Positions 47,565 to 64,000 of a stretch of DNA of 64,000 nucleotides are shown piece after piece. Both the position numbers and the translations under genes were made by a program. Source of the stretch: Alphaproteobacteria bacterium. Its GTDB lineage: Bacteria > Planctomycetota > Phycisphaerae > UBA1845. Location: positions 372,001 to 436,000 of the forward strand of contig JANQQE010000024.1 of NCBI GenBank assembly GCA_028285105.1, in the 5' to 3' direction. A model generated the notes under the pieces. It saw only the letters and a program-made list of their open reading frames with translations, searched no databases and was not told where the DNA came from. Position 1 is the stretch's first letter, and each line of letters starts with the position of its first letter.

Positions 47565-48086
47565 TCACAATTTCGTCCCGCATTCTGGACAATCACCGCT
47601 GACATTGCCCGTCAGATTGTAACCGCACTGCGTACACCGATCGTTGCGATAACGATGCCAACGTCGGAGCGGCCCATGTAAGAAACAGAAAACGGGCCAT
47701 GCCGCAAACACGCCTAGGAGAAACCAGAATGGCACATACGCATAAGTCAGCATCAAACCACCATTCCGCATCCTGGTCATTGAGAAATAGAAATCACCTT
47801 TCTGCCAATGCCAATGACCTGAAGTTGTCGCGTCGCTGGAATGCGGGCAGTACGCCCATCCAGCCAACATCTCAAGTCGGCCGAACTGACCGCTGCATAT
47901 CACGCCGATCTTGTCCCCGAGATCAAAATTCACTTTAAAGCCTTTGTGTTCCAATGGCCCCTGACCCGATTGGGAACACACCCAACGATCTGGCTGAGTG
48001 TAGGCATGCGAAACGCTGAACCACCAAAGTAGCACAGTTCCGATTGACAAGAGCGTCAAGAACGAGATAGCAAACTTTCGAATCAA
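47565..48086 (-). CDS. membrane protein with C-terminal zinc ribbon
   Basis: 173 residues. One N-terminal membrane segment (ISFLTLLSIGTVLLWWF), an extracytoplasmic middle part with CSQSGQG and ICSGQFGRLE, and a second membrane segment (LTYAYVPFWFLLGVFAAWPVFCF). The C-terminal zinc ribbon is CTQCGYNLTGNVSGDCPECG. The start is TTG at 48086, overlapping the TGA of the upstream gene (TTGA), which implies coupled translation. The ribbon probably faces the cytoplasm, by analogy with the related proteins. Function unknown. Confidence 0.75.
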   Translation of the reverse strand: MIRKFAISFLTLLSIGTVLLWWFSVSHAYTQPDRWVCSQSGQGPLEHKGFKVNFDLGDKIGVICSGQFGRLEMLAGWAYCPHSSDATTSGHWHWQKGDFYFSMTRMRNGGLMLTYAYVPFWFLLGVFAAWPVFCFLHGPLRRWHRYRNDRCTQCGYNLTGNVSGDCPECGTKL

Positions 48087-48670
48087 ATCTCAACTCCGCA
48101 CTCTGGACAAAGGCCGCTCTTGTTGCCTCTCAAATCGTAACCGCAATGATTGCACTTACCGATGGCGGCAAGTCTCTTGCGCTCTGCCGCGATTCGTTTT
48201 CGACGTTTGATTCGCAAGACGGTGATGACGTTCCATACGCCGAAGAACAAAGGAATTGTTGCATGGTCTAAGAGTACCGAGATGGAAAGGGCCTTTATTC
48301 CTTTTTGCGGAATGACTGGGTATAGAAATAATGCTAACAGAATGAAACACAGCAGCATGCCGCTTGCGATTGCAGCTATCCAGTCAATGTTTGACAATCG
48401 CAGCGCAGGATTGGTTTCGCGAGGTGACCGGGAATACCGAAATGCCGCACGCGCAGAATGAAAGCCAACGCCAATTGCTGCAATGGCTATCACCAAAATG
48501 ACCCCCCAATGCATCAATGTGACGCGAAAGAACAATGAAGAAAGCAAAGCCGCAAAGAAACCAATGACAGTCCAGTAGAAGACTACTCCAACAACAAATG
48601 TAGCCAACGCCAACAGGATCGAAGTTGTCGTTGAGAATCGTGGTCGTTCATTGCCTGTGCTTTCATTCAT
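48083..48670 (-). CDS. four-helix membrane protein with C-terminal zinc ribbon
   Basis: 195 residues. Four membrane segments (ILLALATFVVGVVFYWTVIG, WGVILVIAIAAIGVGF, WIAAIASGMLLCFILLALFL, HATIPLFFGVWNVITVL), then a basic stretch KRRKRIAAERKR and the ribbon CNHCGYDLRGNKSGLCPECG at the very end. The ATG at 48670 overlaps the stop of the upstream gene by 4 bases (ATGA). Middle gene of a coupled trio (48936 down to 47565). Confidence 0.78.
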   Translation of the reverse strand: MNESTGNERPRFSTTTSILLALATFVVGVVFYWTVIGFFAALLSSLFFRVTLMHWGVILVIAIAAIGVGFHSARAAFRYSRSPRETNPALRLSNIDWIAAIASGMLLCFILLALFLYPVIPQKGIKALSISVLLDHATIPLFFGVWNVITVLRIKRRKRIAAERKRLAAIGKCNHCGYDLRGNKSGLCPECGVEI

Positions 48671-48936
48671 TTTTCCGCTTCGCAGTCCGAGCACAGTTTT
48701 GGAAGGTAGGTCGGCAACTCTTTACCGCAGCGTGGGCAGCGTGCCTTTTGAGCGCCTTGACGGCACGCTTTGCGCATGAGTTGAACAAAGCATCCGATCA
48801 TGATCATCGTGACGACGGCGATCCACCACGGTTTGGGGTACAGGGTCGCCGAGATGAGCAAAATGAATAGCCCCCAAAACAGTACCTCGATCTTGAGCAC
48901 CATCTTGAGGATTTCTGACACGAGTTTCCAGTCCAT
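48667..48936 (-). CDS. small two-helix membrane protein with zinc ribbon
   Basis: 89 residues. Two membrane segments (IEVLFWGLFILLISATLY, WWIAVVTMIMIGCFVQLM) and a C-terminal ribbon CPRCGKELPTYLPKLCSDC, which diverges from the usual YDLTGN type. First gene of the coupled trio. No ribosome binding site of note. Confidence 0.68.
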   Translation of the reverse strand: MDWKLVSEILKMVLKIEVLFWGLFILLISATLYPKPWWIAVVTMIMIGCFVQLMRKACRQGAQKARCPRCGKELPTYLPKLCSDCEAEK

Positions 48937-48978
48937 GACGCATTACACGGCTTGCAATTTTGCCTTCACCTTACGTTA

Positions 48979-50259
48979 TTAATCAATCTTACCACCAATC
49001 GCATCTAGGAATGCAATCATCTTGGCTTCATAATGAGGCGAATCGATACCGATGGTCTCGCAATGGCCGGCGCCGGGGATGGCTCGCCATTGTTTGGGCT
49101 GGTTGGCTGACTTGTAGACCTGTTGGCCCTGGGCGATGGGGATCAGGGTGTCCTTTTCGCCGTGGACCAACATGACTGGGCATGACACTTTTTGGATCGC
49201 TTCGGTTACGTCGAGGCTGAAGAGATTGATGCCGGACTCCATACATGCGAAGACCGTCGCGACGTATGGCGTTACCTGACGGTACACCGGTGGGGCTCCA
49301 GCAGGCAGAATCCTGGCCATGTCCATCGCCGTTGCGAAGACGGCATCGAGGTGCAATCCTTCGATGCGGTCGTCTTCGGCGGCGGCAAACACGAGCGACG
49401 CAGCCCCCATGCTCCAGCCAACACCCAAGACGTGGTTCGAGCGGGCAGGGTGCTTGCGTTTTAGAAAATCGATACCGCTGACGATATCCCACTTTTCTTT
49501 CGGCCCATAGCTGACGGTGTATCCGCCACTTGCACCGTGCCCGCGAAAATCCGGCATCAAAACCGTATACCCACCATCATGCAGCGCCAACGCGAAGTCG
49601 AGCATGTCGGACTTGTCAGCCCCCATGCCATGACACAGAATCACCGCGCGGTCTGAATCTTCTTTGGGGATATACCAGCCAGCAATCCGAACGCCATCGC
49701 GCGACGAGAACGAAACGTCCTCAAACGACAAGCGAACTTCCGCAGGTGTGCGATCGCCCGTTCGCTTGGGAACATGTGTTTGCAGAAACGAAAGCAGATA
49801 CGCATAGATCACGAAGGAAAAGACAACCATCCCTATCGTGCGAATCGCGATCCGCTGCCATTGATTATCCGCGAATCTTTTGGATAGTCTGCGAACAGCA
49901 GCAGCCACCGGAACGTAAAGCCAAGTCGACGTAATCACCACCGCAACCAACCCATAGGCACAAACAGTGCGCCCAAACGAACCGAATGCGTTACTCGGCG
50001 ACAACCAATCCGCACTCGCAGCAACAATGACACCCGATATGGCAATCGCTATAAAGGCGATTCGCGTCCGCCCCTCACGTTTATCACGGGACCAGACTGC
50101 CAACCCACGAACCAGAAAGACCATCGGAATCGCTAGGTAGAACTGCTCCGACCATCCCAAATGCCAAACCGCACCGAGGCCAAGCATGATTGCGATGATC
50201 GCACAATAGGCACAAATAAATCGTTTCCAAATGTTCAACAGTTGCTCCGAGAACCGCAA
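48979..50259 (-). CDS. membrane-anchored alpha/beta hydrolase
   Basis: 426 residues. About five N-terminal membrane segments (residues 15-165) precede an alpha/beta hydrolase domain with the nucleophile elbow GVGWSMGAAS, acid HGEKDTLIP and His GAGHCETIG, and an oxyanion-type AVILCHGMGADKSD. Similar to BAAT/YqkD-type serine hydrolases; substrate unknown. The start is TTG at 50259. A second TTG at 50238 with GGAG 6 bases upstream may be the real start. A broken copy of its 3' end lies at 47319-47408. Confidence 0.85.
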   Translation of the reverse strand: MRFSEQLLNIWKRFICAYCAIIAIMLGLGAVWHLGWSEQFYLAIPMVFLVRGLAVWSRDKREGRTRIAFIAIAISGVIVAASADWLSPSNAFGSFGRTVCAYGLVAVVITSTWLYVPVAAAVRRLSKRFADNQWQRIAIRTIGMVVFSFVIYAYLLSFLQTHVPKRTGDRTPAEVRLSFEDVSFSSRDGVRIAGWYIPKEDSDRAVILCHGMGADKSDMLDFALALHDGGYTVLMPDFRGHGASGGYTVSYGPKEKWDIVSGIDFLKRKHPARSNHVLGVGWSMGAASLVFAAAEDDRIEGLHLDAVFATAMDMARILPAGAPPVYRQVTPYVATVFACMESGINLFSLDVTEAIQKVSCPVMLVHGEKDTLIPIAQGQQVYKSANQPKQWRAIPGAGHCETIGIDSPHYEAKMIAFLDAIGGKID

Positions 50260-50414
50260 TTTGAAGACATGAATTCACCGACTTTCAAGCAGTCGTCGTA
50301 ATCAAGGCTGTATGCCTTCAGGCATCCTCTATTCGCACCATTTCCCGGGATATTCGCCCGCAAAGCACAACGACTGCGATAATGCATCGCCCGTGAATCA
50401 GCGATCGCCCTGCA

Positions 50415-50729
50415 TCAATCAATTGGCGTTCCACACTCAGGGCAAACACCGCTGACGTTGCCCGTCAGGTCATAGCCGCAATTCAAACACTTGCCCTCGG
50501 GCCGATTGTTCACCCACCAAAACCAGTAGGTGGTGAGTCCAACCGGTACAAACATGATCGATAGCGGCACCAAGATCAATTCGAGTAGACCATAACCGGC
50601 ATGCATCAGCAGTTCGAGTTTGTAAAGCAATTGAAGGTAACCGCGATCCAGGCAAATGGTCACAAAGACTACGAGTACGACGATCCCAACTCGCAATGCA
50701 ATTTTTGGGGTTTGAGTGCGCCGACTCAT
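50415..50729 (-). CDS. two-helix membrane protein with C-terminal zinc ribbon
   Basis: 104 residues. Two membrane segments (VGIVVLVVFVTICL, LLELILVPLSIMFVPVGLTTYWF) and the terminal ribbon CLNCGYDLTGNVSGVCPECG. It stands alone, 156 bases upstream of the hydrolase and divergent from the gene at 50823. Role unknown. Confidence 0.75.
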   Translation of the reverse strand: MSRRTQTPKIALRVGIVVLVVFVTICLDRGYLQLLYKLELLMHAGYGLLELILVPLSIMFVPVGLTTYWFWWVNNRPEGKCLNCGYDLTGNVSGVCPECGTPID

Positions 50730-50822
50730 ACCGAATTATTGCTCATGCGTGCGACACAATCCATTGTGACGTACAATCTTCATCCGTTGTCTGGGTTCCA
50801 TGTGTCTTTTGCAGGGATATCA

Positions 50823-51323
50823 ATGACCACGCAGCCCAATGTGAAGCTCGATTTTCGGCGACCGCCTCCGACCGGCAAGGTATTCTTGATGTACATCCCG
50901 GTCGCAATCGTCGGTGTAGGCGGCTGCTTCTTGTTGATTTGGCCGACGCACGGGACCGACTACGAGACGGCTGGCTTCCTCGCATCGTGTGCGCTTGTTC
51001 TTGCGGTGGGCGGATTATTTGTGTGGTGGATGTTTACAACGATGACGCCGATGACAATTGAAGCCCATGCGGATGGGCTGGTAATCATTGATCGCAAGAG
51101 CGGCGACGAGCATCGCGTGGCGTGGGATGAAGTGTCTTATCAATTCATCGAAGGTGGACACAAGGAGGTCACGTTCGTTCACGTTCCCGATGACTTTCTC
51201 GTCGTCGATCAACACCCCAAGTATTGCGCCAGCCCGCCGACCTATCTCGAATTTCGCGAAGCATTGATCGAGCGGGCCCATCCATACCAGCGCTCACAAA
51301 ATGCGGATGGACCCGCCGTTTGA
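50823..51323 (+). CDS. hypothetical two-helix membrane protein
   Basis: 166 residues from the ATG at 50823, with AGGGA upstream; longer frames are not supported. Two membrane segments (VFLMYIPVAIVGVGGCFLLIW, FLASCALVLAVGGLFVWWMF) are followed by a soluble domain of ~100 residues (IEAHADGLVIIDRKSGDEHRV) resembling the PH-like C-terminal domains of small bacterial membrane proteins; that resemblance is weak. Isolated between minus-strand genes. Confidence 0.65.
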   Translation: MTTQPNVKLDFRRPPPTGKVFLMYIPVAIVGVGGCFLLIWPTHGTDYETAGFLASCALVLAVGGLFVWWMFTTMTPMTIEAHADGLVIIDRKSGDEHRVAWDEVSYQFIEGGHKEVTFVHVPDDFLVVDQHPKYCASPPTYLEFREALIERAHPYQRSQNADGPAV

Positions 51324-51345
51324 AACAGTTGGCACGGGAAACCCG

Positions 51346-52179: not shown

Positions 52180-52299
52180 GTCAGATCCGCCTTTCTTTCC
52201 AGTCAAAAAACTGAAATTCATTGACCTGAGTAGCAGGGGGCATGCGGTGTGCCATTCGGCGAAAATCGACCCTGACGACATTTAGAAAGCATTCGTTAT

Positions 52300-52433: not shown

Positions 52434-53192
52434 TCAACCGAGATTCAACGTCGGATCAACCACAGTCCCGCATTCCGGACAGACGCCGCTTTCATTGCCC
52501 GTTAAATCGTAGTCGCAAATCGGGCAGATGCTCCCGTCGTTGATCACCTTCTTCCATCGGAGCAATTGAAATGCGCGTACCGTCGGATAGAGAACCACCG
52601 GTATGGTCAGCACCAAGTAGATGATGTCGGTTACGACGTTTCCAAAGCGCGATGTGATCAGGATCGAGCCGATCAGCACGGGCATCAGGCATAGCAGAAA
52701 TACCGGAATCGCACCGAGCACCGCAGCCGCGGTCGGCCAACGCTTTCGGCGATAGACTTCGCCTGGTGCGAACGAGCGTTGCTCACCGGCATCCGCAACC
52801 CAGAGAAAACCTGTCGGAATCATCGCAACCATGAATAGACACCAAAGTGGCATCGACATGGTCCAGACGCCCAGCATGTTGTTGTGAAAGCGCGGCCACC
52901 AATGGCGTTTCGCATTGCTGGCGCGGCGCACCGGACCGACACGGAAACCAATCCTTGATCGGCTCGAATACTTGCTGATCGCAAACCGGCCATTCGAGAT
53001 CGCCATCGACAGGCACATGCCATTCTTGACCGGACCGCCCGCCACCACTTGATAAGCATCATTCGGATACGCCAGCCGCCAACTGATCCACCAGCATTCA
53101 CTCAACGGCCAACTAATCAAAAGCAGCGCACATACAGCGAGCATTGACCACTTAGCCACACGTCTAAGTTTCGCCAATGTCGGCCAACTCAT
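52434..53192 (-). CDS. membrane protein with C-terminal zinc ribbon
   Basis: 252 residues. Membrane segments at SMLAVCALLLISWPLSECWW, MSMPLWCLFMVAMIPTGFLW, VLGAIPVFLLCLMPVLIGSI and DIIYLVLTIPVVLYPTV, then the ribbon CPICDYDLTGNESGVCPECG, with 10 residues beyond it. The ATG at 53192 overlaps the stop of the preceding gene (ATGA). Last gene of a coupled trio running from about 54.1 kb. Confidence 0.75.
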   Translation of the reverse strand: MSWPTLAKLRRVAKWSMLAVCALLLISWPLSECWWISWRLAYPNDAYQVVAGGPVKNGMCLSMAISNGRFAISKYSSRSRIGFRVGPVRRASNAKRHWWPRFHNNMLGVWTMSMPLWCLFMVAMIPTGFLWVADAGEQRSFAPGEVYRRKRWPTAAAVLGAIPVFLLCLMPVLIGSILITSRFGNVVTDIIYLVLTIPVVLYPTVRAFQLLRWKKVINDGSICPICDYDLTGNESGVCPECGTVVDPTLNLG

Positions 53193-53677
53193 ACTACCGT
53201 CCCGCATTCCGGACAGATGCCGCTTTCATTGCCGGTCAAGTCGTACTTGCAATTCAAGCACGCATCAGGGTACCGCCACAGAATCCAGCGCTTCCGCAAG
53301 ACAAGATACCATGCCACGATGATCAAAAGGAAAAACGTGGGCGGCCAGAGTGGAATCCTGATTTGAAACAATCCCGATTTATTGATTCCGTAGAAGTGAT
53401 CTGGAAGCCAATGGGTGGATAGGTTAGTAAAGCCATGAACTCTGATCCATGGCCGATCGGGCACCATCACTCCATGTTCCTCTTGCATGGCCGCAACGAT
53501 CATCGACTGCGCATACATTCGAGCTGACGGTTCTGTTCACGAAACATAACCGTGATCGAGGAACACCATGTTGTCGTCGGGCGCAAAAATAAGAATTCGC
53601 CAATAGCTCGCCGTCCAAAGCCCGCAAATTAGAAGCAGCAACACACCGGCAAATCTGAATCGAAAGTTGCGAATCAC
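53189..53677 (-). pseudogene. zinc-ribbon membrane protein interrupted by an in-frame TGA
   Basis: The frame opens with GTG at 53677 overlapping the upstream stop (GTGA). It encodes a signal-anchor (FAGVLLLLICGLWTASYWRI) and hits TGA at 53539-53537 after 46 codons, in LDHGYVS-stop-TEPSARMYAQS. It then continues without another lesion through a membrane segment (PPTFFLLIIVAWYLVL) to the ribbon CLNCKYDLTGNESGICPECG. The part after the stop could restart at ATG 53518, giving 109 residues without the first anchor. The layout matches the intact paralogue next door, so a recent nonsense mutation is the simplest reading; a sequencing error is possible. Confidence 0.7.
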
Positions 53678-54099
53678 GTCAAGGTCCCGCATTCCGGACA
53701 AACACCACTAACGTTTCCAGTTAAGTCATAATCGCACTCAACGCAAATTCCTACTTGTCGCCGCTTTCGCCATATGAATAGATAGCAAACGATCAGCATC
53801 AGAAAAGTCGGCATCCAAAGCGGAATGGTAAATCGAGTCATGCCATTGGGATAACGTTGATGAAAGTCTCTCGGTATCCAATGCGTTTCAAAACCGTCAA
53901 AGCCAGCGAACTTCCATGTCTCGTCAAACGGCCACAGCATGTCGATAGACTTCCAGAGTTGCCGTAGCTTCTCGTCTGGGCGAATCCAATCGATACATCC
54001 ATGGGTCAACCAAATCTGGTCTTGGGAAGGTGGATAGAATCCGATTCGACAATAGCTCGCGATCCATGCCGCACCAAAGATCAGAAGCAAGCCGACCAC
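53674..54099 (-). CDS. membrane protein with C-terminal zinc ribbon
   Basis: 141 residues. N-terminal anchor (GLLLIFGAAWIASY), an extracytoplasmic part rich in Trp/Tyr (DETWKFAGFDGFETHWIPRD), a second membrane segment (WMPTFLMLIVCYLFIW), RKRR and the ribbon CVECDYDLTGNVSGVCPECG. It is a paralogue of the next gene and, more distantly, of those at 59519 and 63274. GTG at 54099 is the only standard start available; comparison with paralogues suggests about 11 more N-terminal codons, up to a stop, so the original start may be lost or non-canonical. Confidence 0.7.
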   Translation of the reverse strand: MVGLLLIFGAAWIASYCRIGFYPPSQDQIWLTHGCIDWIRPDEKLRQLWKSIDMLWPFDETWKFAGFDGFETHWIPRDFHQRYPNGMTRFTIPLWMPTFLMLIVCYLFIWRKRRQVGICVECDYDLTGNVSGVCPECGTLT

Positions 54100-54404
54100 A
54101 ACTCGATTAAGAACTTTGCGAAAAATAACTCAGACCCACATCTCGCAATTTCGACTTAGGCGTTGTCCATTGGATTGTAACCGTAATCGACTAGCTATGT
54201 CTTGGCGATGAATCTGCATTGCTGAACTCAAACACGGCACCTACCGTCTATTTGTTCCATCAGATTGAACCCGCCGATTCCGAACAATCCGTTGGACGCA
54301 TACCTTCAGACGCCCCCCAAAACATCCGAAAGTGCCGATAACGGGCTTCGTCTTTTTGCATAGACGGCTTACAACTGCACTTGGGAAAACGGATTTTCCT
54401 TTCA
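54100..54404. other. intergenic region with a decayed zinc-ribbon cassette
   Basis: Besides the cassette remnant at 54133-54185 I see no gene in these 305 bases. The region separates the divergent zinc-ribbon genes and sugar operon. Confidence 0.45.
54133..54185 (-). pseudogene. decayed zinc-ribbon coding cassette
   Basis: Read on the minus strand, the segment begins TACGGTTACAATCC and aligns without gaps to the ribbon-coding DNA of the gene at 47565-48086, with roughly 60 percent identity by hand. Both share CGGTTACAATC and end TGYGGG. A stop codon lies in the middle and most Cys codons are lost. Confidence 0.45.
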
Positions 54405-55199
54405 ATGAACGATTGCGTCGTCATCCTCGCTGGTGGACAGGGAAGTCGCCTTCGGCCTTATACGACCGTGCTGCCGAAACCTCTGATGCCGGTGGGCGAT
54501 GTGCCGATTCTTGAAGTGCTGGTCAAACAGCTTCGTTCACTTGGATTGAAGCGGCTGATCTTCGCGACGAACTACCGCGACGGACTCCTGCGATCCTACT
54601 TCGGAACGGGCCAAACGCTTGGCGTTGACATCACCTATTGCAAAGAGAACCGCCGGCTTGGAACGGTGGGACCGCTGCACCTGATCGCCGACGAATTACC
54701 GCAATCGTTTCTGGTCCTGAACGGCGACATTCTCACCGACCTGAACTACCGCGCACTGCTCGATGAGCACAAACAATCCGGCGAACTGCTGACGCTTGGA
54801 ACATTTCGCCGCAAGCTGAAAATCAAGGACGGCGTCCTCGACCTCGACGATGCCGGGCGCGTCGCTGCATTCCGCGAGAAACCGACACTTCCATTGACGA
54901 TCTCGCTCGGCGCGTATGCGATGGATCGCGGGATTCTCGATCTTATACCTCCGGATGTACCATACGGCATGGACGAATTGGTGCTTTCAATGCTGGAGCG
55001 CAACCTTCCCGTCAACACGTACCACCACGATGGCCTTTGGCTGGACATTGGCACACCCGGCGACCTTGAGAAAGCCAACGAATTGTTCGCATCCAAAAAA
55101 AGAACGTTCCTCGGAATCAATGCAGTCACCCTGCTCCACTCCAATAGCGACGAGCCACAGAACGAATGTACGCAACCGCTGCAAGGAGTCGTCATATGA
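54405..55199 (+). CDS. sugar-phosphate nucleotidyltransferase
   Basis: 264 residues. It begins CVVILAGGQGSRLRPYT, the nucleotide-binding signature of glucose-1-phosphate thymidylyl- or mannose-1-phosphate guanylyltransferase-type enzymes, followed by LPKPLMPVGDVPILE, VLNGDILTDLNY (metal Asp) and LWLDIGTPGDLEKANEL. It activates a sugar phosphate as NDP-sugar. The nucleotide and sugar cannot be read from sequence. The ATG at 54405 is preferred over 54381. It is translationally coupled (ATGA) to the dehydratase downstream, which probably uses its product. Confidence 0.9.
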   Translation: MNDCVVILAGGQGSRLRPYTTVLPKPLMPVGDVPILEVLVKQLRSLGLKRLIFATNYRDGLLRSYFGTGQTLGVDITYCKENRRLGTVGPLHLIADELPQSFLVLNGDILTDLNYRALLDEHKQSGELLTLGTFRRKLKIKDGVLDLDDAGRVAAFREKPTLPLTISLGAYAMDRGILDLIPPDVPYGMDELVLSMLERNLPVNTYHHDGLWLDIGTPGDLEKANELFASKKRTFLGINAVTLLHSNSDEPQNECTQPLQGVVI

Positions 55200-56185
55200 A
55201 TCTCGCGGGCAAACGAGTCCTCATCACAGGCGGGACCGGATTCATCGGATCGCACCTTGCCGAGATGCTCATCGAAAGTGGCTGCCAGGTGCGTGTGCTT
55301 GCCAACTACAAGAGCATGCCCAGTTGCGGCAACCTCGAACACGCCGATCAATACGTCCGCGACGAAATCGAAGTCGTCTGGGGCGATGTCACCGATCGTG
55401 ATTCCGTTATGAACGTAGTCGATGGTATGTCGGTTGTGTTCCACTTGTCGGCGCTGATCGGGATACCTTATTCGTACATTGCGCCGTCATCGTACGTACA
55501 GACCAACATTGTTGGAACCCTCAACGTGTTGCAGGCGTGTCGGGCGCACAGTGTCGAACGCATGGTACATACTTCGACTTCCGAAACCTTCGGATCGGCA
55601 CAGTACACGCCGATGGACGAAAAGCACCCGCTTGTCGGTCAATCGCCCTACTCAGCCACCAAGCTCGGTGCCGACAAGCTCGCCGAAAGCTTCGCGTGCA
55701 GTTTTGAAATGCCCGTCGTCACCGTTCGGCCATTTAACGTTTTCGGACCCCGTCAATCCGATCGCGCGATCATCCCCACGATCATCGCCCAACGCATTGC
55801 CAGCGAAGATCCCGTACGCATCGGCGATCCATCGCCGCGCCGCGACTTCACGTTCGTCACCGACACCGCCCGAGGGTTCATCGCTGCCGCCCAATGCGAC
55901 GAAGCCATCGGCCAAACGTTTAACATCGGCAGTGGCAAGTCGATCTCCATCGGCGAGTTAGCCGACACGATCTGCGAATTGACGGGCGGTGGGTCATTCA
56001 TCAGCGAGTCGCAGCGCATCCGACCCGAAAAAAGCGAAGTCAATGAACTGCGTTGCGACAGCACGTTGGCGCAATCAGTTCTCGGATGGTCGCCATTGGT
56101 AACCCTGACCGAAGGCCTCACCGAAACCATCGAATTCATGCGGAAACATACCGACATGTTCGCCCCGCTTGAGTATCGCGTGTAG
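55196..56185 (+). CDS. NAD-dependent 4,6-dehydratase, LegB-like (extended SDR)
   Basis: 329 residues. GxxGxxG is in VLITGGTGFIGSHLAEML. The catalytic Tyr-x3-Lys is in SPYSATKLGADKLAESF and the Ser/Thr triad segment in HTSTSETFGSAQY. The stretch VFHLSALIGIPYSY and TNIVGTLNVLQACR is characteristic of LegB-type enzymes, which act on nucleotide-linked GlcNAc at the start of legionaminic or related sugar synthesis. AAGGAG precedes the ATG, which overlaps the upstream stop by 4 bases. Its own stop lies inside the REP-like element at 56180. No legC/G/H/I genes are present, so the end product is unknown. Confidence 0.88.
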   Translation: MNLAGKRVLITGGTGFIGSHLAEMLIESGCQVRVLANYKSMPSCGNLEHADQYVRDEIEVVWGDVTDRDSVMNVVDGMSVVFHLSALIGIPYSYIAPSSYVQTNIVGTLNVLQACRAHSVERMVHTSTSETFGSAQYTPMDEKHPLVGQSPYSATKLGADKLAESFACSFEMPVVTVRPFNVFGPRQSDRAIIPTIIAQRIASEDPVRIGDPSPRRDFTFVTDTARGFIAAAQCDEAIGQTFNIGSGKSISIGELADTICELTGGGSFISESQRIRPEKSEVNELRCDSTLAQSVLGWSPLVTLTEGLTETIEFMRKHTDMFAPLEYRV

Positions 56186-56272
56186 GGTCCGCTGTGCGGA
56201 CCGCTGCGAGCTCCTCGCGCTGCTGGTACTGATGCCCAACGAAACCAATGGTCCGCACAGCGGACCCTACAC
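56180..56272. repeat. REP-like element: 23-base inverted repeat of nested palindromes
   Basis: The arms 56180-56202 and 56250-56272 are perfect inverted copies, separated by 47 bases. Each arm is itself a hairpin: GGTCCGC-TGT-GCGGACC and GGTCCGC-ACA-GCGGACC. The middle holds GCGAG-CTC-CTCGC. This is the layout of paired REP sequences (BIME). It overlaps the stop codon of the dehydratase gene and ends 12 bases before the glycosyltransferase start. Confidence 0.8.
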
Positions 56273-56284
56273 TGGAGCCCTACT

Positions 56285-57301
56285 GTGCCTACCGTTTCCG
56301 TTGTTGTACCTACTTATAAGCGCGTTCAGTACCTTGGTCGAATGATCGATTCTGTCGTCGCGCAGACCCATACCGATTGGGAACTCATCATCGTTGATGG
56401 AAAATCCAATGACGGAACTGCCGAACTGGTAGAAAGCTATCAAAAGTTATTGGGCGACAAAATCGTTTTCATCGAACAAGAGAACGCTGGCTGCTGTATT
56501 GCAAGAAACACCGGAATCGATGCCGCCCGCGGCGATTTTGTTGCATTACTTGATTCAGACGATGAGTTTCTGCCCACCAAGCTTGAGCATCAGATGGAAC
56601 TCTTTGACCGCGAACCATCTCTAGGCTTCGTATTTGGCGACTACTCCTACGTCGATCTGGAAGGCAACTTTGAATCAAGTATGTTCGACACCAAGTCGAA
56701 GGTTCTTCGAACCATCCCAACAAACGAAATCGCACCCAACCTTCACATCTGCACGCCGGACTTCTTCTCGTATCTATTGAAAGAGTACTTCGTCGCCACA
56801 ATTGTCGGTGTGGTTCGCCGCGAGGTGCTTGCCAACGACATACGCTTTTTGGAGCATGACCTTTACGGTTGCGAGTGGATGTTCTATCTGGAAATCGCCA
56901 ACCGCTGTCGTGCGGGTTTCGTCGATGAGCCGCTTTGTTTACACCACTATGTCGATGGCAGCCTCTCGCGCACATCGCGAACGCGCAACACGATTTACCA
57001 TCGCCGATTGCTCAAGACGATTATCGACCGATTCCCGAACTTGACCGAATCGCAGTCAAAGGAAGTAAATCTACAGTTGGCCAACACCTGTAGCCAACTC
57101 GGCTACGAGAGTTACAAGGCCAAAGAATACGGTCCGGCAATGGGTTACTTCCGTGAAGCCATGCAAGCCCGCCCCACCGCAGCATCAGCTGTACACTGGG
57201 CCCAATCGCTCCTCCGCCGCACCGCAGCTCTAGATCGCCCCGGAAACGAGCCCATGCTCCGCAACGACGCTTACCGCAATCCCACAAGTATCACAAACTG
57301 A
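56285..57301 (+). CDS. glycosyltransferase family 2
   Basis: 338 residues. GT-A fold: VSVVVPTYKRVQYLGRMIDSV, ELIIVDGKSNDGTAELV, NAGCCIARNTGID, and the metal motif ALLDSDDEFLP (DxD). It transfers a sugar from an NDP-sugar, likely in surface polysaccharide or glycan assembly with the two upstream enzymes. The start is GTG at 56285. Residues ~255-310 are helical (QLGYESYKAKEYGPAMGYF), like a TPR. The last 20 residues (PGNEP-x-L-x-NDAYR-x-P...) recur at the end of another reading frame at 62463-62525. Confidence 0.9.
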   Translation: MPTVSVVVPTYKRVQYLGRMIDSVVAQTHTDWELIIVDGKSNDGTAELVESYQKLLGDKIVFIEQENAGCCIARNTGIDAARGDFVALLDSDDEFLPTKLEHQMELFDREPSLGFVFGDYSYVDLEGNFESSMFDTKSKVLRTIPTNEIAPNLHICTPDFFSYLLKEYFVATIVGVVRREVLANDIRFLEHDLYGCEWMFYLEIANRCRAGFVDEPLCLHHYVDGSLSRTSRTRNTIYHRRLLKTIIDRFPNLTESQSKEVNLQLANTCSQLGYESYKAKEYGPAMGYFREAMQARPTAASAVHWAQSLLRRTAALDRPGNEPMLRNDAYRNPTSITN

Positions 57302-58402: not shown

Positions 58403-59353
58403 ATGCCGAACATTTCAGAGACGACTAAAAAAACTTGTTTTGGTCGATTCTTTTCTTTGGTAATTCTATTGTCAGGAACCCATACTGCAGTCGCTGACAT
58501 CGGCTCGGGCCAGATTGATGGTGGCTGCCCGGACTTCACTGTTTCGTGCCCGATGGTTTATGAACCAGTCGTGTGTGACGACGGCAATACGTATTTCAAT
58601 GAATGTGCCGCCACCTATTGGGGATGCACGACAGGTTGCGAATCCGCTGGCGGTGGCGTGCTATTCATGATGGCAGAGAGTGGCGAATCGGTCGTTCGTG
58701 CCGATTCGAACGTACCTACCAGATCATCACCTGAGCAACAGACCAGTTTCACTGAAAGTCACTACACCGGTTCTACATTCGGCGCAGTCGGATCGGGGCC
58801 CGACGAAGGCACCTGCCCGGACTTCACTGTCTTTTGTTCAATGGTCTATGATCCAGTTTCATGTAGCGATGGTAATACGTATTTCAATCAGTGCGCTGCA
58901 ACGTATTGGGGATGTGCCGAAGACTGTCAACCCGCAGGTGGAGAAATCCAGTTCTTCACAACTGACGACAACGGCGAATCAGGAAACAGCCCAGGTGAAA
59001 TTGTTTTGGCGCCCCAAGCAATGGATAGCGACGGAACGCTCGTGATGGCCGCAGCTACACCCGTCAATACCACTGTTGGGTCTGCGAGTCGCAAGTCTAC
59101 CGACGAAGAACTGTTGTCCATTGAAACCTTTAGTACTGCTCATGAATCACTTCATGGTTCAACAGAATTGAACGACAGTGGAACTACATTAATCACGATG
59201 GGAAGCGAGTGCCCTGACTTCACAATATTCTGCCCCATGGTTTACGATCCCGTCATTTGCGATGATGGAAACACGTACTTCAACCAGTGCGCGGCAACTT
59301 ATTGGGGCTGTGCGAGCAACTGTGAATCAACAGGTGGCTTTGAAGTCGAATAA
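58403..59353 (+). CDS. secreted protein with three Kazal-type inhibitor domains
   Basis: 316 residues. N-terminal export signal (FFSLVILLSGTHTAVA). Three near-identical ~42-residue domains begin at residues ~45, ~138 and ~271: each has CPDFT-x2-C, PV-x-C-x-DGNTYFN-x-CAATYWGC and C-E/Q-x2-GG, the six-Cys Kazal pattern with the DG-x-TY-x-N-x-C hallmark. Kazal domains inhibit serine proteases by a loop near the second Cys. The linkers are Ser/Thr/Glu-rich. AGGAG lies about 10 bases before the ATG. Possible defence against proteases of other organisms, by inference. Confidence 0.85.
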   Translation: MPNISETTKKTCFGRFFSLVILLSGTHTAVADIGSGQIDGGCPDFTVSCPMVYEPVVCDDGNTYFNECAATYWGCTTGCESAGGGVLFMMAESGESVVRADSNVPTRSSPEQQTSFTESHYTGSTFGAVGSGPDEGTCPDFTVFCSMVYDPVSCSDGNTYFNQCAATYWGCAEDCQPAGGEIQFFTTDDNGESGNSPGEIVLAPQAMDSDGTLVMAAATPVNTTVGSASRKSTDEELLSIETFSTAHESLHGSTELNDSGTTLITMGSECPDFTIFCPMVYDPVICDDGNTYFNQCAATYWGCASNCESTGGFEVE

Positions 59354-59388
59354 CTTCTAAATCGAGCACGGCAAACACCATCGCTAGC

Positions 59389-59490
59389 TTGTGGCACCAG
59401 TGAAATTCGAAATTCAAGTTTTACGTCAGCAGGCCTGTTAAGCAGACGAGGCTTCATCAAAAAAACCGACGAATCTCGCTGGTGCCACAA
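59389..59490. repeat. imperfect 21-base inverted repeat forming a long hairpin
   Basis: TTGTGGCACCAGTGAAATTCG (59389-59409) pairs with 59470-59490 with two mismatches; the outer 12 bases are perfect. The interior also carries a small GCCT/AGGC dyad. It lies between convergent genes and looks like a REP or short MITE. Confidence 0.6.
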
Positions 59491-59518
59491 CGCAACGATC
59501 ATGATTGATTAGCTTAAG

Positions 59519-59944
59519 CTACCCAATTACTTCAATGGGTGTTCCACACTCGGGACAGATACCACTCTCGTTTCCACTAAGATCATACACACATTTCCAG
59601 CACTTTCCCGGAAGTATTCGGCTGGACCACCAAAGCCAAATCGTCACAGCAAGCGCCGGCATAAATAGCATCCAAAACGGAATCGTTGTGTACCCGCTGT
59701 TCCACTTGTATGAAGGCCAATGCTTCCACACGCCAAGCGGTCTCACGTCAACCCGCAAACCAGATGCCTTGGTCTGCCCATGCGTATAGAATTCAAAGGC
59801 ACCCTGTCGCAGGAACACGTGAAACCGGCGGCTGCCGTACATGACATGATAAACGCTGGAAATGACCCAACCGGTTGCCAAAAGCACGCACAGAACAATG
59901 CCAATCCGCATGAAGATTCGGCGGATAAAGAAGGGTCTTTTCAT
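59519..59944 (-). CDS. membrane protein with C-terminal zinc ribbon
   Basis: 141 residues. Basic start (MKRPFFIRRIFMR), membrane segment IGIVLCVLLATGWVISSVYHV, extracytoplasmic part with RFHVFLRQGAFEFYTHG and WKHWPSYKW, membrane segment FWMLFMPALAVTIWLWW, and the ribbon CWKCVYDLSGNESGICPECG. It is a close paralogue of the gene at 63274-63708. It follows the endonuclease/MAM gene on the same strand after 96 bases. Confidence 0.78.
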   Translation of the reverse strand: MKRPFFIRRIFMRIGIVLCVLLATGWVISSVYHVMYGSRRFHVFLRQGAFEFYTHGQTKASGLRVDVRPLGVWKHWPSYKWNSGYTTIPFWMLFMPALAVTIWLWWSSRILPGKCWKCVYDLSGNESGICPECGTPIEVIG

Positions 59945-60040
59945 TTATCGCTACCAACATTTCGGGAACGTACTGATTGTGCTGCCAGTTATTTCACCGC
60001 CGCAGCGGAGCCACTGGTCCGCGCTTGTAGTAGCACATCG

Positions 60041-62152
60041 TTACCCGGGGCCAACGAGTTCGGAAACAAACATCTGCAAGTCGGACAGGTTGATGATTTC
60101 ATCGCCGGACAGGTTAGCTGGTTCGCATCCGCCGTTGGCAGGCAAACCAAAGCACGCCATGAACATCGCATAGTCCACAAGGTCTACGTCGCCATCTGAC
60201 TCGAAGTCGCCATCTCCCAAAGGAATGCACAGATCGTCGGATTCGCTGCACCACGTTCCTCCGCCGCACGGGGCGCTTCCGGCCACGCAATCTAAAATCG
60301 GATCGCACGTTTCGGGCCCGTTGCAGAATACGCCGTCGTCACAGTCGTTATCAATCGAGCAGCCGGGTATCACGGTCAACTCGATATCGTCGATGGCGAT
60401 ATCGCTGCTCCAACTTGAGCCGGTGACACCCCTGAATCGAATCGTTCTTATTGCACCCACATGCGCCGTGAGATCGACATTCGCTTGAATCCATTGATCC
60501 CCTTGATTCCCCGAAACGCCAAACACATTGCTCCAGTTGGAACAGTCATCAGCGACTTCAACGTTAAGCGTTCCAAGACTGGTCCCGAACATGTGATACC
60601 AGAATGAAAGTGTCGCGGAACTGGAACCGGTCAAATCGATGCAGGGGCTTTGCAGGTTCGCCGTCTTATCCGGACTGCCATTGTTTGAAGTTGACGCTTC
60701 GGTGTACACGTAGAAACCTGAACCAGTGGTGTGATCGCCGGAAGGACCGGTTCCGTTGGAGAGCGTGGCTCCGCTGAGTCGGGTCCAATCGATGTCGTCT
60801 CCACTGGCGTTGTTCCACAACCCGAATCCCGATTCAAAATTTTCTTGGTAAGGAAATGTGTCGATCAACGCTGGGCACTCATGCTGGCAGGCACCGGCAA
60901 CGCAGGAATCGGTCGTGCAGGCATTACCGTCGTCGCATTCGCCGTTGGCTGAGCAGGTTCCACATTCATCAAGCGATTCATTGCACAAATCGCCTGGGCA
61001 AGGATCGATGCCGGGTTGACAGGTATCGTTGCCATCGCAAAATTCCGCACCGTTGCAAAAGTCGCCATCATCGCAATCCGGGTTTGTCGAACAAGCCGCG
61101 CTGGCCATCCGCACGTCCAACACGATCGGAAGATGGTCGGACGTATTCGCCATTAGCGTATCGCCGGCCTGCAAACCGGCAGCCGCCAATGCCGGTGCAG
61201 ACATGGTGTCGGTGTTCAGAATAAAACTGTTGGCGACGGTCACGACGCTGTCCGTGTAAAACATCCGATCGAGCGCCGACGGAGGAAAACTCTGACTACC
61301 CTGCCATGTGAACGTATCGCCTGTAAAGGGGTCTTGCGGCATGAGGTTGGTCATGTCGCTGGCGTCCCAGTCGCCAGAAACGTCTGCGCCATAAGTGGCT
61401 TCGTCTTGAATATCACCGGTGATGAATGTGTTTTCCGGCTGCGGCCCGCCGACCATGTTGAAGTCTCCCAACACAATCATCGGCGTGTCATCCGCCAGAA
61501 CAACATTGTCCCCAGATGCCCTCACGACACCGCGTGCGTCGCCCAGCCAATTGACGATGGCATCCGCGCTGTCCTGGCGACTGGCATCTTCTGATCCGCC
61601 CGGGTCGCCGCAGCATTTCAGGTGAACGCCGAGCAGATAAATGTCGTCTGCAAAGGTTTCGTCGGGTAAGTCAACCAACGCAATGGTCACACCCCGCGAC
61701 GACGAAATCGGAATCGTGTCGATCCGTGTCATAGTCAAGGGAAATCGCGACACCAGCACCGTTCGAATACCGCCTAGCAATCCAAAATGCACCTGCCAAC
61801 CACCCGGTGTGGGCAGAATACTGTCCATGCGATTTGCAACATCGTTGGTCGAAACCGAACTGGTGAATTCCTGAAAGCAAACCACATCGGGGTTGAGGGC
61901 GACTAAGATGCGGTTGAACTCTGCATCGGTGCTGGAATTGTCAATGAAGTTGCGGGCATGGTTGTAAGACACAATGCGCACATCGAGAGAACTGTCTTTC
62001 GAATAGTCGCCTGAAAGCGGATCGAATGCGTGGGTGCTGGTCGTACACGTGCAAATGATCAACGTCATAAACCATGCAACATGACTGCGCCAGATTCGAC
62101 GCGACATACCTTGCGCCATGGTGCATTTCTGTTTTGCGTACGAATGGAACAT
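60041..62152 (-). CDS. secreted endonuclease/exonuclease/phosphatase with MAM-like and dockerin-like domains
   Basis: 703 residues. The signal is HVAWFMTLIICTCTTSTHA after a basic n-region. Residues ~50-350 form an EEP (DNase I-like) domain: NPDVVCFQEF, LVSRFPLT, GVHLKCCGDP, IVLGDFNMVGG and NTSDHLPIVLDV, with the catalytic Asn/Asp/His set intact. A Cys-rich stretch (~355-430; CDDGDFCNGAEFCDG) follows. Residues ~435-605 look like a MAM domain (YQENFESGFGLWNN, ATLSFWYHMFG, IAIDDIEL). A second Cys-rich segment precedes a dockerin-like EF-hand end (GDFESDGDVDLVDYAMFMA). The ATG at 62152 has GAGG 8 bases upstream and a promoter at 62206-62234. Probably an extracellular nuclease or phosphatase. Confidence 0.85.
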   Translation of the reverse strand: MFHSYAKQKCTMAQGMSRRIWRSHVAWFMTLIICTCTTSTHAFDPLSGDYSKDSSLDVRIVSYNHARNFIDNSSTDAEFNRILVALNPDVVCFQEFTSSVSTNDVANRMDSILPTPGGWQVHFGLLGGIRTVLVSRFPLTMTRIDTIPISSSRGVTIALVDLPDETFADDIYLLGVHLKCCGDPGGSEDASRQDSADAIVNWLGDARGVVRASGDNVVLADDTPMIVLGDFNMVGGPQPENTFITGDIQDEATYGADVSGDWDASDMTNLMPQDPFTGDTFTWQGSQSFPPSALDRMFYTDSVVTVANSFILNTDTMSAPALAAAGLQAGDTLMANTSDHLPIVLDVRMASAACSTNPDCDDGDFCNGAEFCDGNDTCQPGIDPCPGDLCNESLDECGTCSANGECDDGNACTTDSCVAGACQHECPALIDTFPYQENFESGFGLWNNASGDDIDWTRLSGATLSNGTGPSGDHTTGSGFYVYTEASTSNNGSPDKTANLQSPCIDLTGSSSATLSFWYHMFGTSLGTLNVEVADDCSNWSNVFGVSGNQGDQWIQANVDLTAHVGAIRTIRFRGVTGSSWSSDIAIDDIELTVIPGCSIDNDCDDGVFCNGPETCDPILDCVAGSAPCGGGTWCSESDDLCIPLGDGDFESDGDVDLVDYAMFMACFGLPANGGCEPANLSGDEIINLSDLQMFVSELVGPG

Positions 62153-62205
62153 AACTTCGGCCTCTTTCCCGCATTCGGATTCCAGCGTGCAAGCTTGATT
62201 GGGTT

Positions 62206-62234
62206 ATTATAGAGAATTGCTACAGTGATTTGAA
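62206..62234 (-). promoter_or_regulatory. candidate promoter for endonuclease/MAM gene
   Basis: On the minus strand, TTCAAA (62234-62229), a 17-base spacer and a perfect TATAAT (62211-62206), 54 bases upstream of the ATG at 62152. Confidence 0.5.
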
Positions 62235-62462
62235 TTAGGACCGGAATCAATGACAGAATGAACTGGAAACCAGTTGCACTTTTCCAATAGCCCAATAAAC
62301 GCGTTCTCCTCAGCCACAAATGAACTATATAGAGCGGGTCGGATGCAAATTGGAAGCAACACAGACGCGCAGGGTGTGATAATCGCATCTCGAAATATCG
62401 CGACTGCGCGATGGCAAATCAATCAGAACCGACAAAATCGATGCGCCGGAACGCGCACCGGC

Positions 62463-62525
62463 CCGGGCAATGAACCGCTGCTCTGCAACGACGCGTACCG
62501 TGACCCGAAGTGCATATCGGTTTAA
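62463..62525 (+). other. 20-codon C-terminal tail shared with the glycosyltransferase
   Basis: PGNEP-x-L-x-NDAYR-x-P-x2-I-x2-stop. 13 of 20 residues match the last 20 of the GT2 protein (57239-57301), and both stop at the same position. Most DNA differences are at third codon positions. It could be the end of a small gene (62274-62525) or a remnant of a lost gene. Confidence 0.6.
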
Positions 62526-62545
62526 TGCGTTTGGGCTACCATTCG

Positions 62546-63277
62546 TCAGTCTTCAAATGTGTACCAGGATTTACCGACTTCGTAGATCATGAATCCGGTT
62601 GGATGATTGGGAAGCGGGTCGTACTCAAACCCAACGGGATCAAGAACGTTTGAGCCCGTTACAAATCCCACAGTCGTTCGCCCCCCTGGCCCCGTGTAAG
62701 TGATTGGGTGCGCATTCTTAACGTAGTACAATCCGACCCATTTCCCGCGGAATGTTGCGCCCATTTGATAATCAGCGACAGCCGCTTCAAACGCAGTTTG
62801 ACTCAATCGAAATCGCAGCAAGAGTGGCCAGGGATAGATCCACGAAGAAACCACAAGAACTGCGCAAATCGGAACAACCCACCATCGCCATCGGCCAGAC
62901 CGTTCGCTGTCGTCCAGCTTGGCCCTTTCCCGATCCAACCAAGTTGCGGCAGTTCGCACGACATATAGGAGTAGTATTCCAAGCCACAACGGAACACCGA
63001 CGAACGCAACCATGCAGATGCTCCCGGCCTCCCACTGCGCCGGTCCGCTGGCGTTAACAATGCCGTAAAGAGACAACACCGCGAAAATTACGCATTGTCG
63101 ACTTGACAGAGAACTAGCCAAACGTCGCCATCCGACCTTTTTGCTTGCTTGCTGATATGTACTTGGGTCCGCGGGATCAAACCAACGTCCACATTCCGGA
63201 CACCGCTGAGTTGGCAAGTTGACAAGCCAATACGCGCAGTCCATGCACATCATTCGTTTTTCGTTATGTTCAGTCAT
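62546..63277 (-). CDS. membrane protein with N-terminal zinc ribbon
   Basis: 243 residues. Here the ribbon is at the front (CMDCAYWLVNLPTQRCPECG, residues 12-31) with WFDPADPSTY after it. Membrane segments follow at QCVIFAVLSLYGIVN, SICMVAFVGVPLWLGILLLYV and WWVVPICAVLVVSSWIYPW, and the C-terminal ~90 residues are extracytoplasmic (TYTGPGGRTTVGFVTG). The ATG at 63277 overlaps the stop of the upstream gene (ATGA). Last of a coupled trio. Confidence 0.75.
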   Translation of the reverse strand: MTEHNEKRMMCMDCAYWLVNLPTQRCPECGRWFDPADPSTYQQASKKVGWRRLASSLSSRQCVIFAVLSLYGIVNASGPAQWEAGSICMVAFVGVPLWLGILLLYVVRTAATWLDRERAKLDDSERSGRWRWWVVPICAVLVVSSWIYPWPLLLRFRLSQTAFEAAVADYQMGATFRGKWVGLYYVKNAHPITYTGPGGRTTVGFVTGSNVLDPVGFEYDPLPNHPTGFMIYEVGKSWYTFED

Positions 63278-63708
63278 GGCTTCGGTGCCAACTGATCAAA
63301 AGTCGTCCCGCACTCCGGACAAACCCCGCTTTCGTTACCCGTCAGATCATATCTGCACTTCCAGCACTTTCCCGGGAATATGCGGCTGGTGCGCCACATC
63401 CAGATCGTCATAAGCAGTGTCGGCGCAAAAAGTATCCAGAAAGGCATCGTGATGTAGTTGCTGCTTCGTTTGTATGACGGCCAATGCCTCCAATAGCCGA
63501 ACGGTTTCATATCAATCCTGAGCCCGGACGGTTTGGTTGGCCCATGCGTGTAAAACTCGGAGTACCCGTGCCGCAAAAAGACATGGAATCGAGTACCGCC
63601 ATACATAGCCCGGCAAACACTTGCTGTAACCCACCCAGCCGCCAGCAAAACGCAAAGCGCCAAGCCGATGCGCATGAAGAGTCGCCGAGTGTAGTAGGGT
63701 CGCTTCAT
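63274..63708 (-). CDS. membrane protein with C-terminal zinc ribbon
   Basis: 144 residues from the ATG at 63708, which overlaps the upstream stop (ATGA). Same layout as the protein at 59519: basic start MKRPYYTRRLFMR, membrane segment, RFHVFLRHGYSEFYTHG, WRHWPSYKR, membrane segment FWILFAPTLLMTIWMW and the ribbon CWKCRYDLTGNESGVCPECG. By eye the two share well over half their residues. Middle gene of the coupled trio. Confidence 0.8.
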   Translation of the reverse strand: MKRPYYTRRLFMRIGLALCVLLAAGWVTASVCRAMYGGTRFHVFLRHGYSEFYTHGPTKPSGLRIDMKPFGYWRHWPSYKRSSNYITMPFWILFAPTLLMTIWMWRTSRIFPGKCWKCRYDLTGNESGVCPECGTTFDQLAPKP

Positions 63709-64000
63709 ACAGTGTCCCCGCATTCCGGGCAGATGCCGGAGGTATTGCAGGTGAGGTCATAGCTGCATGCGGCACAGTAGCGCCCGTCGGGCGTGATCGG
63801 CTGACGGTGAAAGTCGATATAGAAGAAAACCGAGCAAGCGACGGCGATGCATGTTGGCACGAGCAATCCAATCACTTCGATGAGCGTAACACTTAGCGTG
63901 ATGCCATTCGGCGAAATCGCGTCTAACAACGCGGCAACCAGCGTCAACACCACGAGCACAACCGTCCTGACGAGCAGCCAAAAGAACGGCAGAAGAATCA
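63705..64000 (-). CDS. membrane protein with C-terminal zinc ribbon, N-terminus outside window
   Basis: The minus-strand frame is open to the right edge, so the N-terminus is missing; an internal GTG at 63959 is a possible but unneeded start. Visible are membrane segments (LLPFFWLLVRTVVLVVLTLV, VIGLLVPTCIAVACSVFFYI) and the ribbon CAACSYDLTCNTSGICPECG, where the usual Gly is replaced by Cys (LTCN). First visible gene of the coupled trio. Confidence 0.72.
   Translation of the reverse strand, partial: ILLPFFWLLVRTVVLVVLTLVAALLDAISPNGITLSVTLIEVIGLLVPTCIAVACSVFFYIDFHRQPITPDGRYCAACSYDLTCNTSGICPECGDTV

What the first reader, a model, noticed from the sequence alone, without database searches (positions are those of the whole stretch)
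47565..64000. Local expansion of membrane proteins carrying one zinc-ribbon cassette
Eleven genes in 16.5 kb (47565, 48083, 48667, 50415, 52434, 53189, 53674, 59519, 62546, 63274, 63705) encode small membrane proteins with a C-x2-C...CPECG-type ribbon, nearly always at the C-terminus. The ribbon DNA stays recognisable (for example GGCAATGAAAGCGGC and TGTCCGGAATGCGGGAC recur) while the membrane parts differ in length and helix number. This suggests that the 3' cassette spreads or is homogenised independently of the rest. The motif is common in planctomycetes, but its function is not established to my knowledge.
Basis: partly seen in the sequence, partly recalled or inferred. Interest (0 to 1): 0.65.

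Follow-up and report, generated by a model that had tools for sequence, protein, structure and literature searches.

The report
Zinc-ribbon joint shuffles membrane protein genes
A planctomycete genome carries an array of small membrane-protein genes that nearly all end in the same zinc-ribbon segment, and comparison with sister genomes shows that this segment is the joint at which different membrane parts have been swapped between genes, a DNA-level way of making new proteins around one constant tail.

Summary
The array is real. Nine of the eleven listed genes end in C-x2-C-x-Y-[DN]-L-x-x-N-x-S-G-x-C-P-E-C-G; 48667 has a variant, 62546 another ribbon type at its N-terminus; one more member lies just outside the window. 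The genome holds about 30 strong copies, 10 of them in 17 kb. All 40 relatives examined carry it, but no genome outside the class in the phylum sample did.

Homogenisation is not supported: ribbon codons are near-random between paralogues. Decoupling is supported. In five congeneric genomes, ribbon genes that share a downstream flank have unrelated bodies in 14 of 19 comparisons (controls 4 of 33, apparently chance). Identity switches at the ribbon in both directions: pairs with the same body keep body and ribbon but lose the tail; pairs with the same slot keep tail and flank but lose the body. One exchange looks reciprocal (body alpha/beta with tail A/B), each alpha arrangement being seen in two independent assemblies. 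Another genus shows the same pattern.

Best explanation: tandem birth-and-death of membrane genes, with recombination in the ribbon-coding DNA shuffling bodies onto resident 3' ends. Function is inferred only: a cytoplasmic zinc docking module on variable membrane bodies. No Pfam, NCBIfam or PADLOC model covers the proteins.

The parts
47565..48086 (-). Ribbon gene M012: TM1, extracytoplasmic domain, VPFW, TM2, basic linker, C-terminal ribbon CTQCGYNLTGNVSGDCPECGTKL
   Evidence: overlaps 48083 by 4 nt
48083..48670 (-). Ribbon gene M013: four predicted TM helices, C-terminal ribbon CNHCGYDLRGNKSGLCPECGVEI
48667..48936 (-). Ribbon gene M014: two TM helices, variant C-terminal ribbon CPRCGKELPTYLPKLCSDCEAEK
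50415..50729 (-). Ribbon gene M015: two TM helices, C-terminal ribbon CLNCGYDLTGNVSGVCPECGTPID
52434..53192 (-). Ribbon gene M016: long body with a P-L-W/TM segment and a second two-TM segment related to the gene at C1:436062; C-terminal ribbon CPICDYDLTGNESGVCPECGTVV...
   Evidence: ribbon shares 13 of 16 codons with neighbour 53189
53189..53518 (-). Ribbon gene M017; its body is found with another 3' end in G002 (C16:258580)
53674..54099 (-). Ribbon gene M018, TM1-domain-IPLW-TM2-ribbon
59519..59944 (-). Ribbon gene M019, 'alpha' body type
62546..63277 (-). M020: different family, N-terminal ribbon CMDCAYWLVNLPTQRCPECGRWFDPADPSTY then three predicted TM helices; sits downstream of tail A in the window, G001 and G004
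63274..63708 (-). Ribbon gene M021: body alpha + tail A (TTFDQLAPKP). Predicted TM1 3-31, beta domain 33-89, TM2 90-108, ribbon 115-134 (residue numbers)
63705..64000 (-). Ribbon gene M022 (continues to genome C1:436058, 58 nt outside the window); the slot upstream of the alpha gene holds other bodies in G001 and G002
63307..63366 (-). Ribbon-coding segment of M021, an example of the recombination joint (20 codons, CWKC...CPECG)
47580..47636 (-). Ribbon-coding segment of M012 (first to fourth Cys)
52470..52526 (-). Ribbon-coding segment of M016 (first to fourth Cys)
53204..53260 (-). Ribbon-coding segment of M017 (first to fourth Cys)
59546..59602 (-). Ribbon-coding segment of M019 (first to fourth Cys)
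48979..50259 (-). Alpha/beta hydrolase inside the array, conserved at about 69% in G001 and G004
54381..57301 (+). Nucleotidyltransferase, epimerase and glycosyltransferase genes, conserved at 79-89% in congeners; syntenic anchors inside the array

Best explanation
The locus is a lineage-specific array of small membrane-protein genes undergoing birth and death, in which the ribbon-coding 60 bp serve as a recombination joint. A crossover or conversion tract that ends in the ribbon joins the upstream membrane/extracytoplasmic body of one gene to the resident 3' end (later part of the ribbon, tail and downstream neighbour) of another. This gives in-frame chimeras with a new body and a constant C-terminal ribbon. 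Shown by sequence: body/tail discordance and the switch at the ribbon. Inferred: ordinary homologous or homeologous recombination as the cause, with selection keeping only chimeras that have an intact ribbon. Also inferred: in the commonest architecture the protein spans the membrane twice with both ends in the cytoplasm (very basic N-terminus, TM1, small beta domain outside, TM2, basic linker), and the Zn-binding ribbon docks variable bodies to one common cytoplasmic partner. The docking function is a guess at about 0.3.
For: Among 167 C-terminal-ribbon genes of five congeneric genomes, pairs sharing a 200-nt downstream flank have unrelated bodies in 14 of 19 cases; ordinary genes in the same loci do so in 4 of 33, and those four look like chance matches (Fisher p=1.2e-5). 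Nine slots treated as independent: body identity 0.25-0.37 (random), ribbon 5' half 0.64, 3' half 0.74, tail 0.74, flank 0.77. Nine same-body pairs: body 0.75-0.81, ribbon 0.78-0.81, tail 0.40, flank 0.22. The tail, inside the ORF, follows the flank rather than the body, so whole-gene movement alone does not explain it. Apparent reciprocal exchange: G001 has alpha+B and beta+A; G004 has alpha+A and beta+B; the window has alpha+A and G002 alpha+B. Three unrelated bodies carry the same tail next to tRNA-Arg(CCG) in G001, G002 and G004. A second genus shows unrelated bodies with shared ribbon+tail+flank: ribbon 3' half 0.94, body 0.30-0.41. In the nine slots, 3'-half ribbon codons exceed the null (0.57 against 0.467, P=0.025).
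Against: The independent-slot tests of where inside the ribbon the crossover lies are weak (P=0.025 for the 3' half, P=0.048 for the difference between halves); some junctions seem to lie at the very 3' edge of the ribbon. One slot (G002:C30/G004:C96) also changed ribbon type, so its 3' half does not match. Exact shared runs between paralogous ribbons are short (15-17 nt in the words checked), poor substrate for RecA. Pooled body and ribbon codon identities of orthologues are equal. In unsaturated pairs the ribbon excess (0.826 body, 0.705 ribbon) is only partly beyond the control (0.818, 0.764). Controls for tails are on less divergent genes. The congeners compared are MAGs.
Confidence: 0.7

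Rival explanations
1. Ordinary whole-gene tandem duplication and divergence: ribbon and body are inherited together, and the ribbon looks constant only because purifying selection holds its amino acids.
For: Codons of paralogous ribbons are near-random (0.452 against 0.394). Pooled orthologue codon identity is equal in body and ribbon (0.600, 0.607). Some orthologues are concordant throughout (63705 and G004:C69:257; C1:139890 and G002:C30:747722).
Against: 14 of 19 slot-sharing ribbon pairs have unrelated bodies; tails follow the flank and not the body; the tail/body combinations look reciprocally exchanged. Duplication surely supplied the copies, but it does not make these chimeras.
Confidence: 0.15
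2. The 3' end (ribbon + tail + flank) is itself a spreading or homogenised cassette: copies of one ribbon overwrite others by gene conversion.
For: In G007 and G295, adjacent or dispersed genes with unrelated bodies share ribbon, tail and flank. Neighbouring ribbons are slightly more alike in codons than expected (0.507 against 0.455, P=0.0035). 52434/53189 share 13 of 16 ribbon codons.
Against: Genome-wide, ribbons are no more alike within a genome than between genomes (0.448 same genome other contig, 0.446 other genome). In the window's genus the 3' ends stay anchored to conserved neighbours while bodies change.
Confidence: 0.2
3. Bodies enter by horizontal transfer from other strains and recombine into resident slots, rather than moving between slots of one genome.
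For: Many bodies are lineage-specific; the locus ends at a tRNA gene in three congeners.
Against: The incoming body of several chimeras is present at another slot of a congener's same array (M118 body = M082; M121 body = M081). Only one weak relative was found in a viral contig.
Confidence: 0.3
4. Assembly artefact: assemblers joined unrelated contigs at the repeated ribbon.
For: The congeners compared are metagenome assemblies, and the ribbon is a repeat.
Against: Each alpha-tail arrangement (A or B) is seen in two independent assemblies; shared exact runs between ribbons look shorter than usual assembly words (my knowledge of assemblers); tails and flanks have diverged by 10-25% since the joins.
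Confidence: 0.05

Closest known systems
Polymorphic toxin loci (Rhs/CdiA type; PMC3482391)
   Same: A constant coding segment at which recombination attaches variable modules, giving chimeric genes and arrays.
   Different: There the constant part is 5' and the variable toxin cassette 3', with immunity genes. Here the constant part is a 20-residue C-terminal ribbon and the variable part is the N-terminal membrane body. No toxin or defence model matches.
Paralogue families diversified by recombination between conserved ends (Neisseria pil/opa, mycobacterial PE/PPE, Mycoplasma vsa; from my own knowledge)
   Same: Tandem or dispersed paralogues with conserved segments flanking a variable membrane or surface part.
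   Different: No silent cassettes, phase switching or recombinase were seen here, and divergence between alternative states is old (70-95% identity of tails and flanks).
Membrane proteins with a cytoplasmic zinc ribbon (Pfam Zn_Ribbon_1, Zn_ribbon_3, DZR; TcaA-like proteins of Firmicutes, from my own knowledge)
   Same: Two CxxC knuckles next to transmembrane helices.
   Different: C-terminal, with a fixed Y-[DN]-L-x-x-N-x-S-G loop; all Pfam and NCBIfam matches are below their cut-offs.
Paralogisation and domain shuffling described in Gemmataceae (PMC8567305)
   Same: Lineage-specific families with new domain combinations in planctomycetes.
   Different: That work concerns large known families such as kinases, gyrases and BamB; zinc and ribbon do not occur in its text.

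Membership tests
Zinc-ribbon domain proteins | Two CxxC/CPxCG knuckles 11 residues apart | tested here: met
   Nine window genes plus the 436062 gene, and alignment A1
Zinc-ribbon domain proteins | Match to a curated zinc-ribbon model at its cut-off | tested here: not met
   Best Pfam bits 18 against 27 (Zn_ribbon_3) and NCBIfam 19 against 32
Zinc-ribbon domain proteins | Zinc bound by the four Cys | not testable with these tools
   Needs purified protein
Gene-conversion-homogenised multigene family | Paralogues within a genome more alike at silent sites than expected or than between genomes | tested here: not met
   0.448 within (other contig) against 0.446 between genomes; only immediate neighbours slightly raised
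Integron gene-cassette array | A recombination site (attC, roughly 60-140 nt) between successive genes | tested here: not met
   Coupled genes overlap by 4 nt, leaving no room for a site between them; attC was not scanned for elsewhere
Polymorphic toxin / polyimmunity locus | Constant 5' part with variable 3' toxin or immunity module | tested here: not met
   The constant part is the 3' ribbon; no toxin or defence model matches
Known fold for the extracytoplasmic domain | Clear structural match of the predicted TM-beta-TM body | tested here: inconclusive
   Best Foldseek E 0.068 (claudin), best VIA Z 6.5 over 58 residues at 5.8 A

The most novel reading that the evidence does not exclude
In this order of planctomycetes a protein-domain-coding segment at the 3' end of dozens of genes serves as a genome-wide exchange joint, giving a standing system that swaps extracytoplasmic and membrane modules onto one constant cytoplasmic zinc module and so diversifies a class of membrane receptors or interaction proteins.
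Probability: 0.3. Interest if true: 0.72.

Novelty: new variant of a known kind. Interest (0 to 1): 0.52.

Why it matters
The family is large (2 to 90 ribbons per genome in all 40 relatives), confined to one class in the samples searched, and covered by no Pfam or NCBIfam model at its cut-off. It gives a concrete case in which a conserved domain's DNA, not a dedicated recombinase site, appears to drive modular gene assembly. It also predicts a shared cytoplasmic partner of the ribbon that could be pulled down. If the exchange is ongoing, these arrays would be a bacterial diversification system outside the known pathogen examples.

Tried and rejected
Pfam, NCBIfam, PADLOC and PHROGs: no match above a curated cut-off; the PHROG matches are unnamed families at the ribbon or a TM helix. 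PDB by sequence and by fold: no convincing relative. Families I and II of bodies seemed to merge in an iterated HMM search, but hhalign supports only 13 columns around the P-[FL]-W motif, so I do not claim they are one family. A ribbon gene tree was not attempted: 20 codons are too few. Literature searches for this motif in planctomycetes found nothing relevant. tRNA-linked integration was considered: the array ends at tRNA-Arg(CCG) in three congeners, but the window has no tRNA near its end of the array. Integron cassettes were rejected because of the 4-nt overlaps. Whole-gene duplication alone was rejected.
Full report
What is there. The window is C1:372001-436000 of a 4.81-Mb, 36-contig genome. 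A congeneric genome, G001, has a 95,136-base contig, the same length as that of 'Phycisphaerales bacterium UBA1845'; the window's organism is therefore a planctomycete of class Phycisphaerae and, by inference, a relative of UBA1845. The minus strand from 47565 to the window end, and 466 bases beyond it (C1:436062-436466), carries twelve small membrane-protein genes. Ten end in a C-terminal ribbon of the form C-x2-C-x-Y-[DN]-L-x-x-N-x-S-G-x-C-P-E-C-G followed by 3 to 16 residues. 48667 has a variant (CSDCE). 62546 has another ribbon type at its N-terminus. Several genes are coupled by 4-nt overlaps. No Pfam or NCBIfam model reaches its cut-off.

How widespread. The ribbon profile has 67 matches at E<=0.01 in this genome and 2 to 90 in each of 39 others examined as relatives. 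In a sample of the class, 60 of 198 genomes match at 1e-8: 33 of them in the window's own order (up to 43 copies), the other 27 with 1 to 12 copies. In a phylum sample, 6 of 199 match at 1e-5, all within the class and including the window's own genome. So this ribbon type is common in one order and rare elsewhere.

Architecture. The bodies are not one family. A frequent type starts with a very basic stretch (MKRRIRKRRILKW), then TM1, about 60 residues, a [IVM]-P-[FLI]-W motif, TM2, a basic linker and the ribbon. AlphaFold of 63274 gives TM1 3-31, a small beta domain 33-89 and TM2 90-108 (mean pLDDT 80). No solved structure matches clearly. By the positive-inside rule both ends, and so the ribbon, would lie in the cytoplasm (inference). 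Other bodies have two or four other TM helices. Weak similarity between the two commonest body types is limited to the P-[FL]-W/TM2 region.

Is the ribbon homogenised? Where two cluster ribbons share an amino acid, they share the codon in 45% of cases against 39% from codon usage (P=0.01). Across five congeneric genomes the value is 0.448 within a genome (other contig) and 0.446 between genomes. Only immediate neighbours are raised (0.507, P=0.0035); 52434/53189, with 13 of 16 shared codons, is the clearest window case. General homogenisation is therefore not supported.

Are body and 3' end decoupled? Synteny of the array is conserved in the genus: the 1700-aa gene to its right is 85-88% identical, and the nucleotidyltransferase/epimerase/glycosyltransferase genes inside it 79-89%. 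Ribbon genes in between turn over. Pairwise DNA blocks begin and end in ribbons. I collected 167 C-terminal-ribbon genes and about 600 other ORFs from five congeners. Of 19 between-genome ribbon-gene pairs that share the 200 nt after the stop codon, 14 have unrelated bodies, 1 is intermediate and 4 are concordant. For other genes 29 of 33 are concordant, and the four exceptions look like chance matches.

Where is the switch? In nine slots treated as independent, identity is 0.25-0.37 in the body, 0.64 in the first ribbon half (the unrelated baseline is 0.62), 0.74 in the second half, 0.74 in the tail and 0.77 in the flank. In nine same-body pairs it is 0.75-0.81 in the body, about 0.8 through the ribbon, 0.40 in the tail and 0.22 in the flank. 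The same-body pairs were picked for having a different 3' end, so it is the existence of both sets, often as complementary halves of the same genes, that carries the argument. Since the tail lies inside the ORF, this is not whole-gene transposition. In ordinary genes of the same body but different flank, the last 21 nt are conserved at 0.62, against 0.37 for ribbon genes; the controls are less diverged, so this is supporting evidence only.

Clear cases. (1) G001 C18: body alpha with tail B and body beta with tail A; G004 C50: alpha with A and beta with B; the window's 63274 is alpha with A; G002 is alpha with B. (2) At the slot next to tRNA-Arg(CCG), three unrelated bodies in G001, G002 and G004 share the same tail (P-x-YPRQDxNL) and flank. 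(3) G004 C50:16247 has the body of G001 M081 and the tail of M082. (4) In the window, the slot at 63705 holds a different body from the same slot in G001 and G002, and the body at 436062 recurs in G002 with another tail. Independently, in G007 and G295 (another genus), genes with unrelated bodies share ribbon 3' half (0.94), tail and flank within one genome.

Limits. The placement of the crossover inside the ribbon is supported at P=0.025 in the nine independent slots, and some junctions seem to be at its 3' edge. Silent divergence of the ribbon exceeds that of the body in some unsaturated pairs (dS 1.33 against 0.36, and 1.54 against 0.31), but over all pairs the contrast is small. The congeners are MAGs; artefactual joins are unlikely because each alpha-tail arrangement recurs in two assemblies. 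Whether the donor body comes from the same genome or another strain is open. Selection that tolerates only in-frame chimeras with an intact ribbon would also place junctions at the ribbon; this is compatible with the explanation given.

Verdict. The homogenisation idea is not supported. The independence idea is supported in the form 'bodies are exchanged at the ribbon'. Function remains inferred.

Noticed in passing
window 47277-47540 (-): Remnant of the alpha/beta hydrolase gene (77 nt at 74% identity to 49062-49138) just downstream of the array; suggests a segmental duplication that decayed.
   Followed up: partly
L054:8718-8791, L056:10030-10103, L058:4562-4635: tRNA-Arg(CCG) borders the array in three congeners, and the last ribbon gene's ORF runs toward it; the tRNA is absent near the window's end of the array.
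   Followed up: partly
window 56180-56272: Perfect 23-nt inverted repeat (GTGTAGGGTCCGCTGTGCGGACC) with a 47-nt spacer between epimerase and glycosyltransferase genes; each arm is itself partly palindromic.
   Followed up: no
window 57237-57276 and 62461-62500: 40-nt direct repeat, 80% identical, read as GNEP[ML]L[RC]NDAYR at ORF ends; nature unknown.
   Followed up: no
window 58403-59353 (+): Predicted protein with Kazal-type domains, unusual next to membrane-protein arrays.
   Followed up: no
window 60041-62152 (-): Secreted-looking protein with an endonuclease/exonuclease/phosphatase domain and a MAM domain.
   Followed up: no
window 44004-44198: Lysine-rich 15-nt repeat (histone-tail-like coding repeat), nine overlapping registers.
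   Followed up: no
G002:C16:257726-258580, G001:C18:55414-56427: Ribbon genes with two copies of the TM-beta-TM body in one ORF and a degenerate ribbon between them, as expected from fusion of tandem copies.
   Followed up: partly
G003:C133:271-1178: Adjacent genes with bodies only 31% identical share a near-identical 40-nt tract (linker and first ribbon half), then differ in ribbon type (LPEPR against NVSG); possible conversion tract.
   Followed up: partly
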